From NCBI GenBank assembly GCA_030603495.1, contig JAUVXR010000056.1, positions 1 through 6,024 on the forward strand: a stretch of DNA of 6,024 bases, in the 5' to 3' direction. Under the pieces are notes generated by a model. The model saw only the letters and a program-made list of their open reading frames with translations, did no database searches and was not told the DNA's origin. This document shows positions 1,421 through 5,648 of the stretch, piece by piece (the stretch's first letter is position 1; each line of letters opens with the position of its first letter). The translations under genes were made by a program, and so were the position numbers. The DNA comes from a bacterium. Lineage in GTDB: Bacteria > Armatimonadota > Zipacnadia > Zipacnadales > Zipacnadaceae.

Positions 1421-1546
1421 ATGATGAACGAGGAAATAGCACGATTCTTCAACACCACACCGACCTGCCACGCTGGAAACGATCCAGCCGTGGCCCCCCA
1501 TATTCGGTTGCGCCTAGCCTTCCAGTCATGCTCGTACAGCCTGTAG
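1421..1546 (+). CDS. Possible 41-codon small ORF after the nuclease fragment
   Basis: ATG at 1421 (or 1424) opens a 41-codon frame ending with TAG at 1544-1546. A purine-rich GAAGGA lies directly in front but only one base away, too close for efficient initiation. The product begins MMNEEIARFFNTTPTCHAG; no domain is recognised. It may be a real small protein, a frame-shifted leftover of the preceding nuclease gene, or chance. It stops just before the first repeat copy at 1552. Confidence 0.2.
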   Translation: MMNEEIARFFNTTPTCHAGNDPAVAPHIRLRLAFQSCSYSL

Positions 1547-1551
1547 GACTG

Positions 1552-1587
1552 ACATAGCAGGTGGTACCACTAATGGGGGCATCTATG
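1552..1587 (+). repeat. Dispersed intergenic repeat, copy A (right half only)
   Basis: Bases 1552-1586 align with 3373-3408 at about 30 of 36 positions, with one single-base gap. Shared blocks are ACATAGC, GGTGGTACCA and GGGGCA. The copy contains the perfect 10-base palindrome GTGGTACCAC (1561-1570), and CATAG (1553-1557) can pair with CTATG (1583-1587), closing a stem around it. It lies between the small ORF and the secreted-protein gene. The family is not one I recognise. Confidence 0.5.
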
Positions 1588-1634
1588 GAAAGCGAAGTCA
1601 AGGCATGAGACGTGCTCTTTGCGCTGGAAGCCCG

Positions 1635-1659
1635 GATGCCAGAAGCTTAGCATCTGGCA
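1635..1659 (+). promoter_or_regulatory. Leader hairpin(s) upstream of the secreted-protein gene
   Basis: TGCCAGA (1637-1643) and TCTGGCA (1653-1659) form a perfect 7-bp stem with a 9-base loop ending 8 bases before the Shine-Dalgarno site. A second, mutually exclusive 5-bp pairing, GATGC (1635-1639) with GCATC (1650-1654), overlaps it. This could affect mRNA stability or translation, or be a weak terminator of upstream transcription (no T-run). No convincing sigma-70 promoter was found for this gene. Confidence 0.3.
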
Positions 1660-1667
1660 CACTATAA

Positions 1668-1684
1668 AAGGAGGAAACAACATG
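1668..1684 (+). promoter_or_regulatory. Strong ribosome binding site and ATG, out of frame with the following gene
   Basis: AAGGAGGA (1668-1675) stands 6 bases before ATG at 1682-1684, an excellent initiation site. Read from this ATG, translation stops after 28 codons at a TGA. The signal peptide and the long protein lie in a frame offset by one base. The natural start was probably this ATG, before a one-base change somewhere in 1685-1703 (or a sequencing or assembly error). Confidence 0.55.
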
Positions 1685-1703
1685 TCCAGATCTATCATTA
1701 GTC

Positions 1704-3293
1704 GTGATAATATGCCTGGCCGTCGCCACGGCTGGCGCCCAGCAGAGCGGCGACGACCTCACGCGTGACGGGCCGGCCGGCATTCTCCCCGTCCAGGTCC
1801 GCCTGGTCGATGAGGAGGCGCCTAGTGGGCTGCAGCTAGTTGTGCTGGACGACACCAGGAAGCAGGAAGGCAGCTACGAGTACGAGCGTGTGATGCTTGA
1901 CCTGGCGACCATAGAGGATTTCCAGGCCAAGCCACTCTTGGGCCGGTGGGGACGTCCAGCGACCGCCGTTTGGCGCGACTATGAACTGACGGAGCTTTTG
2001 CGCAAGCTCAACAGTGGCAACGGGGACGCTGCGGTCAACGAGATATACGAGCGCCTGGACTGGGCCAAGGCAGACGAAGACGGCGGACCAGTGCCTCTAC
2101 CCTGGCAGGACATCATCATCGCCCTGCTCAAGCAGCTGGGCAGTACGTGGGCGGTAGTGGACTTCCCCGCCAGAAGCGAGGAGGTGCGCGTAACGCTCAC
2201 CGGATGGCCTCCGGTCAAGGGCGAAACGCTGCGGCAATCCGAGCAGAGGGTCATACAAGAGGTTGTGCAGACCGGCTGTGGGGTCCAAGGCACCGTTTCG
2301 CTCGGTGATCCGGACAACCCGGCCGAAGGCGTGGAAGTATACCTAGTGCCAGCAGCAAGCGTCCCCGGACTCGGCTGCCTTGGCAAAAGGCCCGATGACC
2401 AGAAACCAAACCCGCGTGGGGGAGCCGTAGTGCTTACAGGAGACGGCTCTGGTCGGACGAGTCCGGGCGACGTTGGTAAGCTTGAGAATGCAGCCGGTGT
2501 GAGGACCGTGCTAACAAACTGGGACGGCCACTTTGAGTTTGACGGAGTCGCCGACGGTGAGTATGTGCTCGTGGCCAAGAGCCCAGCCAAGTCCAACTAC
2601 TTCAGCTTGCTGTACCCGGACAACCGTTGCTTGAATCCTAAGGACAAGGACTGGGAGTCCATAGACATCCAGAGCAACGTGCGCAACCGCCGCTTGGTGA
2701 GTCGCCATGATGCACCGCTGACGCTCCAGCCTGTGGTCGACGAAAAGGTGGCGCACATGGTAGAGCAAGCGCCCGGCGTCACGGGCATCTTGGGCAAGAT
2801 ACTTGCCAAGTTCCTGCTCTTCCCTGGTGCCGCCGATTTCGCGGAACACCTGGCGATGGACACCGGTTATCTGGCTGGCGAGGGAGGGGCGAAGGGCGCC
2901 TACTATGGGCTGCGCATCCCGGTGGGCAAGAGCAAGGTGGATTACGGGCCCAGGGGGGCCGCCCGATCCAGTATGAAGTTGGCGGTCATGCGCGCCAATA
3001 ATGGGTCCAGGTATGTCTGCTACACCAAGCTCACGCTGCTGGCAGCAGTACCTGAAGCCACTCTGCAGTTTGCCGGCCGTAAGCACGAGTCCAGGTTTGG
3101 CGTGGCCCTGGGTGTGGTGCCGGCAGCACAGGACTCGAAGGTCGTGGGCCCCTACCTGACCCTCGTGCCAAAACACAGCTTCCGGCTGATGGGCGCCTAC
3201 AGTGTAGATGCGGATGACGACCAGCATCGCTGGTTCTGGGGGGCTACCCTCGACGCCAGCAAGCTGCTCAAGGACCTGATCTCTCCGGACTGA
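1704..3293 (+). CDS. Secreted protein with carboxypeptidase-regulatory-like domain; apparent 5' frameshift
   Basis: The frame stays open to TGA at 3291-3293. GTG at 1704 is the only in-frame start candidate near the N-terminus and has no Shine-Dalgarno site; the well-placed ATG at 1682 is one frame off. The in-frame text around it (SLVVIICLAVATAGA-QQ, roughly 1692-1745) is a signal peptide with an AxA-type cleavage site, so the protein is exported. Residues about 191-295 (from GTG) look like a carboxypeptidase-regulatory/CNA-B-type beta-sandwich: GVQGTV, EGVEVYLVPA, a Gly-rich insert, then TNWDGHFEFDGVADGEYVLVA. The first 190 residues form a mixed region of unknown fold. The last 90 or so residues alternate in beta fashion (FGVALGVVP, GPYLTLVP, FRLMGAYSVD, RWFWGATLDASKLL) and resemble the closing strands of an outer-membrane or surface beta structure. 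Exact function unknown; a cell-envelope or surface role is inferred. The next gene is convergent. Confidence 0.65.
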   Translation: MIICLAVATAGAQQSGDDLTRDGPAGILPVQVRLVDEEAPSGLQLVVLDDTRKQEGSYEYERVMLDLATIEDFQAKPLLGRWGRPATAVWRDYELTELLRKLNSGNGDAAVNEIYERLDWAKADEDGGPVPLPWQDIIIALLKQLGSTWAVVDFPARSEEVRVTLTGWPPVKGETLRQSEQRVIQEVVQTGCGVQGTVSLGDPDNPAEGVEVYLVPAASVPGLGCLGKRPDDQKPNPRGGAVVLTGDGSGRTSPGDVGKLENAAGVRTVLTNWDGHFEFDGVADGEYVLVAKSPAKSNYFSLLYPDNRCLNPKDKDWESIDIQSNVRNRRLVSRHDAPLTLQPVVDEKVAHMVEQAPGVTGILGKILAKFLLFPGAADFAEHLAMDTGYLAGEGGAKGAYYGLRIPVGKSKVDYGPRGAARSSMKLAVMRANNGSRYVCYTKLTLLAAVPEATLQFAGRKHESRFGVALGVVPAAQDSKVVGPYLTLVPKHSFRLMGAYSVDADDDQHRWFWGATLDASKLLKDLISPD

Positions 3294-3313
3294 CCACGGA
3301 GCAACCTGCCGAT

Positions 3314-3408
3314 CCACGCTGCGAACAATATTCTGCGTCTCATCATTCGCGCTGTCTGGCGCGGGGACGGCAACATAGCGGGTGGTACCATTAGTAGGGG
3401 CAGCTCAT
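3314..3408 (+). repeat. Dispersed intergenic repeat, copy B (longest copy)
   Basis: The left part (3321-3377) matches copy C (4826-4882) at 51 of 57 positions; bases 3341-3377 (37 bases) are identical. The right part (3373-3408) matches copy A. The left part contains the hairpin CGCGC-TGTCTG-GCGCG (3348-3363). The right part contains the palindrome TGGTACCA, and ATAGC (3375-3379) can pair with GCT and AT (3403-3405, 3407-3408) around a bulged C. The unit lies in the 189-base gap between two convergent genes, so it may also affect transcript ends. Confidence 0.6.
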
Positions 3409-3454
3409 AAGCGCGCCCCGCCTATGTCGGTAGGACGCACCAGAATGCTCACTT

Positions 3455-3494
3455 CCCGCACACAGGGCACTGCTGCCGTGCGTTAGGGTGCGGG
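3455..3494 (-). terminator. Possible terminator at the end of the DUF4382-like lipoprotein gene
   Basis: CCCGCAC (3455-3461) and GTGCGGG (3488-3494) are perfect 7-base inverted repeats spanning the TAA stop of the minus-strand gene. A smaller GGCA/TGCC stem is nested inside. There is no T-tract, so an intrinsic terminator is only a possibility. Confidence 0.3.
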
Positions 3495-4568
3495 CGGCTC
3501 CGGAATCGTGGCCAGTCCTGACTCAAGTGGAAATACTCCGGTAATGTCGTCGGGTGAAGAGATGTCCGACGCCGCTGCGATCGAGGCGCCGACCGTCCCC
3601 GGACTGGCTCCAACGGCGACATCGTAACTGACAAACAAGGTCAGTGTTCCGGGGAATGAGAAGTGCTGGTCAGTGATGTCCAGCGTTGTCGGGCTAGCCC
3701 CCATGGGAGCACTGCCAATGGAGGCGTCGTCGGTCCCCGGATCAGCAGGATTGAATACGTCATCTCCCCCGTCAACCCAGACCTCTACAGTATCAACATC
3801 GGCTGCCGTGGCTGTTCCCAACAATGTTACGTCCAGGGCCGCAATGCTGGCGAAGTTGTCGTCCAACGCGAAGTCCAGTTGGAGCATAGGAACCTGTGTA
3901 GCTCCCGGGCTGACTTCTGCCGGGGCTATCGAGGTAGCTGTGACGGTCACCGTCTCCCCCTGGCTTATGTCGGTGACGATGAGAGCCATTGGTTCCAGCA
4001 TCCACTGGCCATTACCGGTGCAATGGACCGAGTTATGTGTGTTCCAGTCCAACTGAAGTATCGTATTGTACCCATCGGAGATCGTGAACTGGATCGGCAG
4101 CTTCAGCCCCGTTTGTGCACCGCTGGGCACAAAGACAGGCTCTACACTCTCGTCGTTGAATTCGATCTCGGCGCTGGCCACGATGAGTTCTAGCTTCTCG
4201 TAGTCGCCCGGCGGCAAGTCCTCCTCTAATAGTGGCCAGCTTGCCGGTAGGTTCAATACGTCAATTACAGTGTCTTCGGACATATCGAGGCGAATGGGCG
4301 GTGCGCCTACCGGTATCACCCGAATCTGTCCGATAGTGACTCTTAGGGCCACCGCTTCGGGTGGTACGCCTTGATAGCCAGCGGTGGCGACCACTGCAGC
4401 GGATGTCTGAGCAACCCCGGCCCCGGCGGCGCCGGAGTCCCCCATGTGCAGGACGAAGTTGTCACCGACAAACGGCACTCCACTGCCTCCACAGCCAGCA
4501 ACTAAGCCGATCAGTGCGATAGACAAAACGGCAAGTAGCGCGGACTCCACAGGTGAACTGCTGTTCAT
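3483..4568 (-). CDS. Lipoprotein with DUF4382-like domain and C-terminal beta domain
   Basis: The start is ATG at 4566-4568 (minus strand). A strong Shine-Dalgarno site sits 6 bases upstream, and the hydrophobic signal segment follows directly; the longer frame from 4604 only adds 12 residues. The product is 361 residues. Residues 10-26 give a membrane segment ending in VAGC-GG, a lipobox with Cys26 as the lipidation site, so it should be anchored in the envelope. Residues about 70-205 match my recollection of DUF4382: ALRVTIGQIRVI, DVLNL, PLLEEDLPPGDYEKLELIV, VPSGAQTGLKL, ILQLDWNTHNSV, WMLEPMALIV. Residues about 210-350 form a beta-rich domain with Asp-rich turns (VEVWVDGGDDVFNPADPG) that may bind calcium. 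It is monocistronic with its own promoter. Odd point: the signal's n-region (MNSSSPVES) has no Lys or Arg. The biochemical role is unknown. Confidence 0.8.
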   Translation of the reverse strand: MNSSSPVESALLAVLSIALIGLVAGCGGSGVPFVGDNFVLHMGDSGAAGAGVAQTSAAVVATAGYQGVPPEAVALRVTIGQIRVIPVGAPPIRLDMSEDTVIDVLNLPASWPLLEEDLPPGDYEKLELIVASAEIEFNDESVEPVFVPSGAQTGLKLPIQFTISDGYNTILQLDWNTHNSVHCTGNGQWMLEPMALIVTDISQGETVTVTATSIAPAEVSPGATQVPMLQLDFALDDNFASIAALDVTLLGTATAADVDTVEVWVDGGDDVFNPADPGTDDASIGSAPMGASPTTLDITDQHFSFPGTLTLFVSYDVAVGASPGTVGASIAAASDISSPDDITGVFPLESGLATIPEPPAP

Positions 4569-4574
4569 GCTGGG

Positions 4575-4582
4575 TCCTCCTC
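4575..4582 (-). promoter_or_regulatory. Shine-Dalgarno site fixing the start of the DUF4382-like lipoprotein
   Basis: On the minus strand these bases read GAGGAGGA, 6 bases before the ATG at 4568. This favours 4568 over the upstream in-frame start at 4604, which would begin inside the leader about 2 bases after the predicted transcription start. Confidence 0.7.
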
Positions 4583-4612
4583 TCGATGTACTCTCGGCAA
4601 CCATACCGCGGC

Positions 4613-4641
4613 AGCATAACCTTATTGAGCGTATTTGTCAA
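4613..4641 (-). promoter_or_regulatory. Sigma-70-type promoter of the DUF4382-like lipoprotein gene
   Basis: Read on the minus strand: a perfect -35 TTGACA (4636-4641), a 17-base spacer, then TATGCT (4613-4618), 4 of 6 matches to the -10 consensus. Transcription would start near 4606, giving a leader of about 38 bases containing the Shine-Dalgarno site. Confidence 0.6.
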
Positions 4642-4683
4642 GAATGATTGAACTATTCGCGACAGAATTGCATTCAAAAGGTC

Positions 4684-4709
4684 CCCCCTATGGCTGGATT
4701 GGTAGGGGG
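4684..4709. other. GC-rich perfect stem-loop upstream of the minus-strand promoter
   Basis: CCCCCTA (4684-4690) and TAGGGGG (4703-4709) form a perfect 7-bp stem with a 12-base loop, about 45 bases upstream of the -35 box. The right arm continues into GGCAGC, so GTAGGGGGCAGC (4702-4713) nearly repeats a block of repeat copy B (3394-3404). It could be an operator-like dyad or a scrap of the repeat family. Confidence 0.3.
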
Positions 4710-4814
4710 CAGCACCAACGGGGGAATGTTCGCCGCAGGGCCTGCAGGGTACACGTTTGGCCTGCCGAGGTCTACGCGGTGTCGTACGAAAGCAGAGAAA
4801 ACAAGGAGGAGTTC

Positions 4815-4922
4815 CCACGCCGGCGGCGAACATCACTTTACGTCCCATCATTCGCGCTGTCTGGCGCGGGGACGGCAACATAACATCCGTTCCAGGTGCG
4901 TCTATAACCCTGGGAGTTATGT
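4815..4922 (+). repeat. Dispersed intergenic repeat, copy C, ending in a paired-box hairpin
   Basis: Bases 4826-4882 match copy B at 51 of 57 positions with a 37-base identical core (4846-4882), including the CGCGC/GCGCG hairpin. The right half has diverged from A and B in sequence but can still fold. ACATAAC (4878-4884) pairs perfectly with GTTATGT (4916-4922), and TTCCAGG (4890-4896) pairs with CCTGGGA (4909-4915) with one G-T wobble. A 5-base bulge (4885-4889) sits on the left side only. Confidence 0.6.
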
Positions 4923-5099
4923 ACACATCTTTAGGTTTGGTGAGTATATAACTCGGCTTACGGACTCACTGTCCAGCGTCTTAGGTTTTTCTGTTAGTCC
5001 ACTGTGTAACATTGTAGGGCCACACTACTTGTGATAGAGTTCATTCGGGTCCCAAAGACCCTCCTGATGAGGCGGAGCATCTCACCGCTGACGCTGATC

Positions 5100-5127: not shown

Positions 5128-5556
5128 GTGAATAATCAGGCAAAAAACCTTCTTGGTCTTGTTCTCTTTGTGATGGTACTCGGTGCAGGTTGCGGAAGAG
5201 GCGTTGACACTGCGAACAGTTTGGCAACGGCACTCAAGCGCAATGGGATAGAGTATCAAGTGATAGAATCGGTTGATGTTGACGACTTCAGCCATGCTAA
5301 GATTGATGAAGCCATCGCTTTAAAAGGCGACAATCTCCGGCTCGAAATATTTCGTATTGAAGATGAAAAAACGTATAAACTCTTCGTGGTGTCGTGGCTT
5401 CTTCTGGGGGCAGCCGAGACAAAAGTACAACAGAGACTGCCGGGCAGACCTGACGTCTACTCAAAGAGGCCTTTCGTAATCATCATTAGAAAAGAACCCC
5501 AGAAGGGACATGTAAAAGAGGTGTTGAAAAGAATCCTTCCCGAGCAAGAAGGCTAG
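5128..5556 (+). CDS. Small predicted lipoprotein of unknown family
   Basis: 142 residues from GTG at 5128 to TAG at 5554-5556. The frame is closed upstream by TGA (5095-5097) and has no in-frame ATG before the signal segment, so GTG is the best start; its ribosome site is weak (GGGGG, 5113-5117). Residues 1-22 (MNNQAKNLLGLVLFVMVLGAGC) are a lipoprotein signal with Lys6 in the n-region and Cys22 as the likely lipidation site; the residue at -3 is Gly, a non-standard lipobox. The mature part is a small mixed alpha/beta protein: TANSLATALKRNGIEYQVIES, LKGDNLRLEIFRI, TYKLFVVSWLLLGAAE, then RPFVIIIRKEP and VKEVLKRIL. No catalytic motif is visible. The gene is clearly more AT-rich than its neighbours, which fits acquisition from elsewhere. 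Function unknown; an envelope location is inferred. Confidence 0.72.
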   Translation: MNNQAKNLLGLVLFVMVLGAGCGRGVDTANSLATALKRNGIEYQVIESVDVDDFSHAKIDEAIALKGDNLRLEIFRIEDEKTYKLFVVSWLLLGAAETKVQQRLPGRPDVYSKRPFVIIIRKEPQKGHVKEVLKRILPEQEG

Positions 5557-5562
5557 GTAAGC

Positions 5563-5648
5563 ACTTAACAGCCCACTTCAGCGCCTCGACCGGGGCGTCA
5601 AATATGGTGCTGATGCACGCGTCGAGGGGCTGAAGTGCACAGTTGTCG
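5563..5648. repeat. Large imperfect palindrome with attC-like layout
   Basis: The arms 5574-5590 and 5621-5637 are 17 bases long and complementary except for one G-G mismatch. The 30-base interior can fold further (GCGTCA 5595-5600 with TGATGC 5611-5616, wobble allowed). Outside the arms are unpaired 4-base spacers on both sides (5570-5573 and 5638-5641), then AAC (5567-5569) opposite GTT (5642-5644). The left box ACTTAAC (5563-5569) matches RYYYAAC; the right box GTTGTCG (5642-5648) keeps GTT but fails most of RRRY. It begins 6 bases after the lipoprotein stop, so an ordinary (non-T-tract) terminator or RNA hairpin is the main alternative. Confidence 0.5.

What the first reader, a model, noticed from the sequence alone, without database searches (positions are those of the whole stretch)
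1552..4922. Three partial copies of an unrecognised structured intergenic repeat
Copies A (1552-1587), B (3314-3408) and C (4815-4922) lie only between genes, all in the same orientation. B shares 51/57 bases with C in its left half and about 30/36 with A in its right half. Each can close an outer stem: CATAG/CTATG in A, ATAGC/GCT-c-AT in B, ACATAAC/GTTATGT in C. Between A and C an A-T pair is replaced by a G-C pair, as expected if the fold matters. A GTGGTACCAC-type palindrome is kept in A and B, and a CGCGC/GCGCG hairpin in B and C. Candidates are a small non-autonomous mobile repeat, a recombination site or an RNA element.
Basis: seen in the sequence. Interest (0 to 1): 0.6.

Follow-up and report, generated by a model that had tools for sequence, protein, structure and literature searches.

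The report
IS3 ends and rnpB-type attachment site
The three "copies of one RNA-like repeat" are really fragments of two kinds of mobile DNA: two ends of a common insertion sequence (IS3 family) and one attachment site of a recombinase-driven mobile element that targets the end of the cell's RNase P RNA gene.

Summary
The repeats are real: they recur in this genome and in same-genus genomes at E down to 1e-23. They are not three copies of one structured element. A (1462-1586) is a decayed IS3-family 3' end: a fragment of the transposase C-terminus plus the right terminal inverted repeat. B (3318-3407) is a shared module, "L" (3318-3371), plus the same IS3 terminal repeat, ending at 3407. C (4754-4970) is L followed by something else: the arm and core of an attachment site. 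Its core, GTGAGTATATAA-CTCGGC-TTACGGACTCAC (4940-4969), is dif-like. It matches the 3' end of rnpB, the RNase P RNA gene. In relatives that core lies 129-220 bp upstream of 24 Xer-like tyrosine-recombinase genes, several directly downstream of rnpB itself, including in this genome on contig C20. Different left and right arms are joined precisely at the core, as site-specific recombination would produce. The proposed outer stem fails: only 35% of cells pair over 23 copies, with no excess covariation. The CGCGC/GCGCG hairpin shows no compensatory changes. A and B are ordinary. C belongs to an order-wide family of rnpB-associated recombinase elements, a target for which I found no description in the library searched. 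What L is remains open.

The parts
1462..1550 (+). Decayed 3' end of an IS3-family transposase gene (orfB)
   Evidence: Frame reads ...RPATLETIQPWPPIFG..., matching RPPAPEAIQPWPPAFG of the IS3 copy on G000:C36 and RPPAPEAVQPWPPASATPQL of G004:C29; 75% DNA identity over 102 nt to C36.
1551..1586 (+). A: IS3-family right terminal inverted repeat, last 5 nt decayed
   Evidence: PWM 47.7 bits; the same 36-mer lies directly 3' of IS3 rve_3 coding sequence on G000:C36 and C51, G004:C29 and C63, G006:C5 and C50.
3318..3371 (+). B left half: module L, truncated on its left
   Evidence: 86% identity over 90 nt (L plus terminal repeat) to C24; 88% over 60 nt to C; 12 L copies aligned.
3372..3407 (+). 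B right half: IS3-family right terminal repeat, ends ...GGGGCAGCTCA at 3407
   Evidence: PWM 53.3 bits. In the 23-copy alignment conservation stops at column 36, which is 3407.
4754..4876 (+). C left half: module L with its longer left extension
   Evidence: Homologous to G006:C31 and G004:C29 over 110-220 nt; sequence-profile match of 87.7 bits.
4877..4939 (+). C right half: left arm of the recombinase attachment site (ACATAAC 4878-4884 and GTTATGT 4916-4922 lie here)
   Evidence: 95% identity over 90 nt to G006:C2, where the recombinase gene follows; same arm plan on G036:C260 and G006:C11, C33, C56.
4940..4969 (+). dif-like recombination core: GTGAGTATATAA (4940-4951), CTCGGC (4952-4957), TTACGGACTCAC (4958-4969); copy of the rnpB 3' end
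   Evidence: One of only two hits in this genome; the other is the rnpB 3' end on C20, with the recombinase gene next to it.

Best explanation
The finding is a mosaic of mobile-DNA debris. A and the right half of B are right terminal inverted repeats of a ~1.25-kb IS3-family insertion sequence; A still carries a decayed piece of the transposase end. L, shared by B and C, is a low-copy module found mainly in one genus. In B-type copies it is bounded on the right by the IS3 end, so it probably spread as an IS3-end-bounded, transposase-less derivative (inferred). C is L joined to a recombinase attachment site whose dif-like core copies the 3' end of rnpB. Inferred mechanism: an Xer-like tyrosine recombinase recombines attP (arm-core-int) with the rnpB 3' end, which leaves rnpB-core-int on one side and arm-core-flank on the other. 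C is an arm-core-flank junction of that kind. Shown: the sequences, the adjacency and the reassortment of arms. Inferred: integration, excision, and that C pairs with the C20 copy.
For: IS3: the repeat follows rve_3 coding sequence in six or more copies in three genomes. OrfB on G006:C50 matches NCBIfam transpos_IS3 at 169 bits, above its cut-off of 160, and that copy has both ends about 1.25 kb apart. The window A frame matches the OrfB C-terminus. Conservation ends sharply at the terminus. Attachment site: full RNase P RNA (RF00010) ends at the core beside the recombinase gene in G000, G016, G019, G024 and G009 and in G036. The core lies 129-220 bp upstream of 24 recombinase genes. Left-arm and right-arm classes recombine at the core: the arm of C occurs with three right arms besides its own unique flank, and other arms with two or three. 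The own-genome recombinase (308 aa, intact) keeps R, K, HxxR, H and Y.
Against: No recombinase gene lies in the window, and the flank right of C is unique, so I could not show an empty site or that C is the partner of the C20 junction. The core in C has two mismatches to the consensus. The origin and left end of L are unresolved and no target-site duplication could be tested. The draft assembly (the window is a whole 6,024-bp contig) prevents mapping the element ends. A vertically inherited recombinase gene next to rnpB would explain the rnpB copies alone, but not the dispersed ones.
Confidence: 0.82

Rival explanations
1. A single structured RNA (riboswitch, small RNA or ribozyme-like element) present in three partial copies.
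For: Each copy contains short complementary stretches, and the CGCGC/GCGCG hairpin is kept in 93% of cells.
Against: The outer stem pairs in 34.8% of cells over 23 copies, and covariation is not above shuffles (96 of 500 reach it). The L hairpin has no compensatory change and all 500 shuffles reach its score. No Rfam match. Modules are found separately.
Confidence: 0.04
2. L plus the IS3 end is a true MITE family (IS3-mobilised, ~110-220 bp with both ends), and B and C are two members, C having been modified by later recombination at AACATAAC. (Compatible with the best explanation; it would settle the identity of L.)
For: Five L copies end flush at the IS3 right end. On G006:C2 an IS3 left end and leader lie directly left of L.
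Against: Most L copies lack a recognisable IS3 left end and their left borders differ. No target-site duplication was shown.
Confidence: 0.45
3. Integron-like cassette array: A, B and C are attC sites between cassettes (three same-orientation sites 1.5-1.8 kb apart).
For: Genes alternate with the repeats; C has an ACATAAC/GTTATGT inverted pair resembling attC boxes; a tyrosine recombinase is associated with C's homologues.
Against: The boxes do not fit RYYYAAC/GTTRRRY. A and B are IS3 ends. The recombinase scores 106 bits against the integron-integrase model (cut-off 265) and 244 against XerC.
Confidence: 0.03

Closest known systems
IS3-family insertion sequences
   Same: orfA/orfB layout, rve_3 integrase core, ends of the TGACCT(T)GCCCCC...GGGGGCAGGTCA type, ~1.25 kb
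   Different: The window holds only decayed or solitary right ends; L-bearing copies have no transposase gene
ssrA-specific genomic islands of Dehalococcoides (PMC3146451)
   Same: Copies of a short stretch of the 3' end of a single-copy RNA gene mark element borders, with the integrase gene next to the copy and several elements in one genome
   Different: The target here is rnpB, not ssrA; the recombinase is a tyrosine (Xer-like) rather than a serine recombinase; the core is dif-like; copies here are spread over contigs rather than shown as a tandem downstream of the target
XerC/XerD-dif and dif-exploiting mobile elements
   Same: XerC-like protein (TIGR02224, 244 bits) and a core of two inverted arms around a 6-bp spacer
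   Different: Below the XerC equivalog cut-off (335); core sequence matches rnpB, arms are 12 bp, and extra arm repeats flank it

Membership tests
IS3-family terminal repeat (A, right half of B) | Repeat lies directly 3' of an IS3-type transposase gene | tested here: met
   PF13683 hits immediately upstream in at least six copies; NF033516 over cut-off for the G006:C50 copy. A keeps a decayed piece of that gene; B does not
IS3-family terminal repeat (A, right half of B) | Sharp outer border with unique flanks | tested here: met
   Conservation stops at column 36 of 42 in 23 copies
IS3-family terminal repeat (A, right half of B) | Matching left terminal repeat at about 1.2 kb | tested here: met
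   Left and right ends about 1.25 kb apart on G006:C50 (L138); ends imperfect. Not present for A or B in the window
IS3-family terminal repeat (A, right half of B) | 3-5 bp target-site duplication | not tested
   No left end identifiable for A or B, so no duplication could be looked for
rnpB-targeting integrative element (C) | Attachment core identical or near-identical to the target gene's 3' end | tested here: met
   Against the dispersed consensus TAACTCGGCTTATAGACTCACT: 20/22 bases in C, 21/22 at the own rnpB 3' end
rnpB-targeting integrative element (C) | Tyrosine recombinase gene next to the core | tested here: met
   24 cases at 129-220 bp, including own C20 next to rnpB; not in the window itself
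rnpB-targeting integrative element (C) | Arms exchanged precisely at the core | tested here: met
   Left and right arm classes reassort at the core
rnpB-targeting integrative element (C) | Excised circle or empty site | not testable with these tools
   Draft assemblies, no reads
Integron attC / gene cassette | RYYYAAC ... GTTRRRY boxes and an IntI-type integrase | tested here: not met
   Boxes do not fit; TIGR02249 106 bits against cut-off 265
Structured RNA family | Match to a known family or covarying helix | tested here: not met
   No Rfam match at E up to 1; no covariation above shuffles

The most novel reading that the evidence does not exclude
An order-wide family of Xer-like tyrosine recombinases uses the 3' end of the RNase P RNA gene as attachment site, with dif-like 12-6-12 cores, and carries copies of that end around the genome so that element arms reassort at it; C in the window is one such junction.
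Probability: 0.6. Interest if true: 0.55.

Novelty: new variant of a known kind. Interest (0 to 1): 0.4.

Why it matters
It prevents a false "new RNA element" from being recorded, and it points to rnpB, a single-copy gene for an RNA enzyme present in nearly all bacteria, as an integration target for a mobile recombinase family. tRNA and tmRNA genes are the textbook targets; my searches of the open-access library found no paper describing rnpB in that role, although that library is incomplete.

Tried and rejected
Rfam scan of the window: no match at E up to 1. Collection scans for short exact pieces of L: a 27-base piece found nothing in viral contigs; a 19-base piece found four hits in genome contigs, unrelated beyond the matched bases. 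L as a protein-coding module: the frame NREEFP..ANSTLRLIIRAVWRGDGNI is open in several copies, but two have TGA at the Trp, substitutions do not favour third positions by eye, and no credible Pfam or NCBIfam match and no plasmid match was found. Recombinase in viral contigs: no relative; in phage records only distant ones, under 35% identity. Integron attC and single-RNA readings were rejected. The ORF at 5128-5556 was searched in 61 genomes to test whether the flank of C is the chromosome downstream of rnpB: found only in the own genome, so uninformative. A regex scan for the IS left end timed out and was replaced by BLAST.

Full report
What was checked. The window is the whole of a 6,024-bp contig (G000:C3) of a 2.67-Mb draft genome. 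The repeats are real. B matches another place in the genome at E 1.5e-23 (C24), C at 1.1e-15, and C44 at 2.1e-15, with two shorter matches to its right half on C44 and C36. Same-genus genomes G004 and G006 and one genome of another family in the order (G036) carry more. No Rfam family matches.

The copies are modular. Lining up all copies at the shared AACATA shows one left module L (present in B and C) and two alternative right modules. A and B have the first (consensus AACATAGCAGGTGGTACCATTAATGGGGGCAGGTCA). C has the second (AACATAACATCCGTTCC...). What lies left of A is not L. So the copies do not form one element: A and B share one module, B and C another, A and C none.

A and the right half of B are IS3 ends. 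The 36-mer lies immediately 3' of IS3 integrase-core (rve_3) coding sequence on G000:C36 and C51, G004:C29 and C63, and G006:C5 and C50. The transposase on G006:C50 scores 169 bits against NCBIfam's IS3 model, above its cut-off of 160, and its left and right ends are about 1.25 kb apart. In window A the frame upstream of the 36-mer still reads RPATLETIQPWPPIFG, against RPPAPEAIQPWPPAFG in the C36 copy. Over 23 copies conservation stops abruptly after ...GGTCA, as expected at a transposon end. In B that end is at 3407.

The proposed folds. On the 23-copy alignment the CATAG/CTATG stem pairs in 34.8% of cells and its two central pairs occur only in A; the structure as a whole (this stem plus the palindrome) shows no covariation beyond shuffles. 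In B the 3' strand of the stem runs past 3407 into unique flank. The CGCGC/GCGCG hairpin in L is 93% paired, but with no compensatory change and no excess over shuffles. The claimed A-T to G-C exchange compares the IS3 end in A with a non-homologous arm in C.

C is an attachment site. Its right module continues on G006:C2 into an intact tyrosine-recombinase gene (PF00589, 123 bits; best full-length model XerC, 244 bits, cut-off 335). The last part of the module, AACTCGGCTTATAGACTCACT in relatives, is the 3' end of RNase P RNA. Rfam finds a complete RF00010 gene ending at that sequence, directly beside the homologous recombinase gene, on own contig C20 and in G016, G019, G024 and G009; the same holds in G036. 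Searching the sequence itself gives two places in the own genome, rnpB on C20 and C in the window (4949-4970, two mismatches), and thirteen in G006. Across the order, 24 recombinase genes have such a copy 129-220 bp upstream, in the same orientation; where several copies and the host rnpB could be compared, variants of the copy tended to follow the host's own rnpB end (impression, not tested statistically).

Evidence for recombination at the core. With the sequences split at CTCGGC, left arms fall into classes (the arm of C, three other repeated arms, rnpB, and three singletons) and right arms into others, and they are combined freely: the arm of C occurs with three different right arms besides its own unique flank, rnpB with three, and the other repeated arms with two or three. 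On G006, C28 and C31 share an identical 100-nt right arm but have different left arms. Junctions exchanged exactly at one point are what site-specific recombination leaves. In C the core reads GTGAGTATATAA-CTCGGC-TTACGGACTCAC (4940-4969): two inverted 12-bp arms around 6 bp, as in dif sites (the comparison with dif is from general knowledge). The own-genome recombinase is intact and keeps the catalytic R, K, HxxR, H and Y.

What remains open. L is restricted to G000, G004, G006 and one G036 contig. Five copies end in the IS3 terminal repeat, and five (C and four in G006) run into the attachment arm, always at AACATAAC or its variant AACATGAC. That junction probably formed once and was then copied with the element (inference). 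On G006:C2 an IS3 left end lies left of L, which favours an IS3-derived non-autonomous element, but most other copies do not show it. Whether C is the partner of the C20 junction cannot be settled on this draft.

Comparison. The nearest described system in the library is the ssrA-specific islands of Dehalococcoides (PMC3146451): same logic, but a different RNA gene and a serine recombinase. Searches for rnpB as an attachment site found no paper describing it; the two of the four co-mentioning papers that I opened use the word for other things, and two were not opened.

Verdict. A and B are ordinary IS3 debris; C is a junction of an rnpB-associated recombinase element, a new variant of a known kind. 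Interest 0.4, carried by the rnpB association rather than by the repeat as first described.

Noticed in passing
G000:C20:54757-56339 (L142) and G016, G019, G024, G009, G036: An Xer-like recombinase gene sits directly 3' of rnpB in at least six genomes of the order.
   Followed up: yes
L042/L046 (G006:C2:4203-5754): Two inverted L-plus-arm copies (~166 nt, 82% identity) flank an intact recombinase gene, like a composite element.
   Followed up: partly
G000:C28:19844-20056 and G006:C11:79933-80037: Weak RNase P RNA matches (28.5 and 20 bits) that span the whole model in only 213 and 105 nt: possible shortened rnpB-like copies.
   Followed up: no
window 5567-5644: 34-nt inverted repeat (76% complementary) just after the 142-aa ORF, possibly a terminator.
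   Followed up: no
window 4697-4729: Weak (64%) resemblance to the IS3 terminal repeat, just upstream of C.
   Followed up: no
L105, L081, L082, L085-L087, L090 and others: Many recombinase relatives in the order have an in-frame stop, suggesting repeated decay of these elements.
   Followed up: no
G036:C18 (L029/L058): L with two IS3 right ends in tandem, in a genome of another family (8% contamination): transfer or contamination.
   Followed up: no
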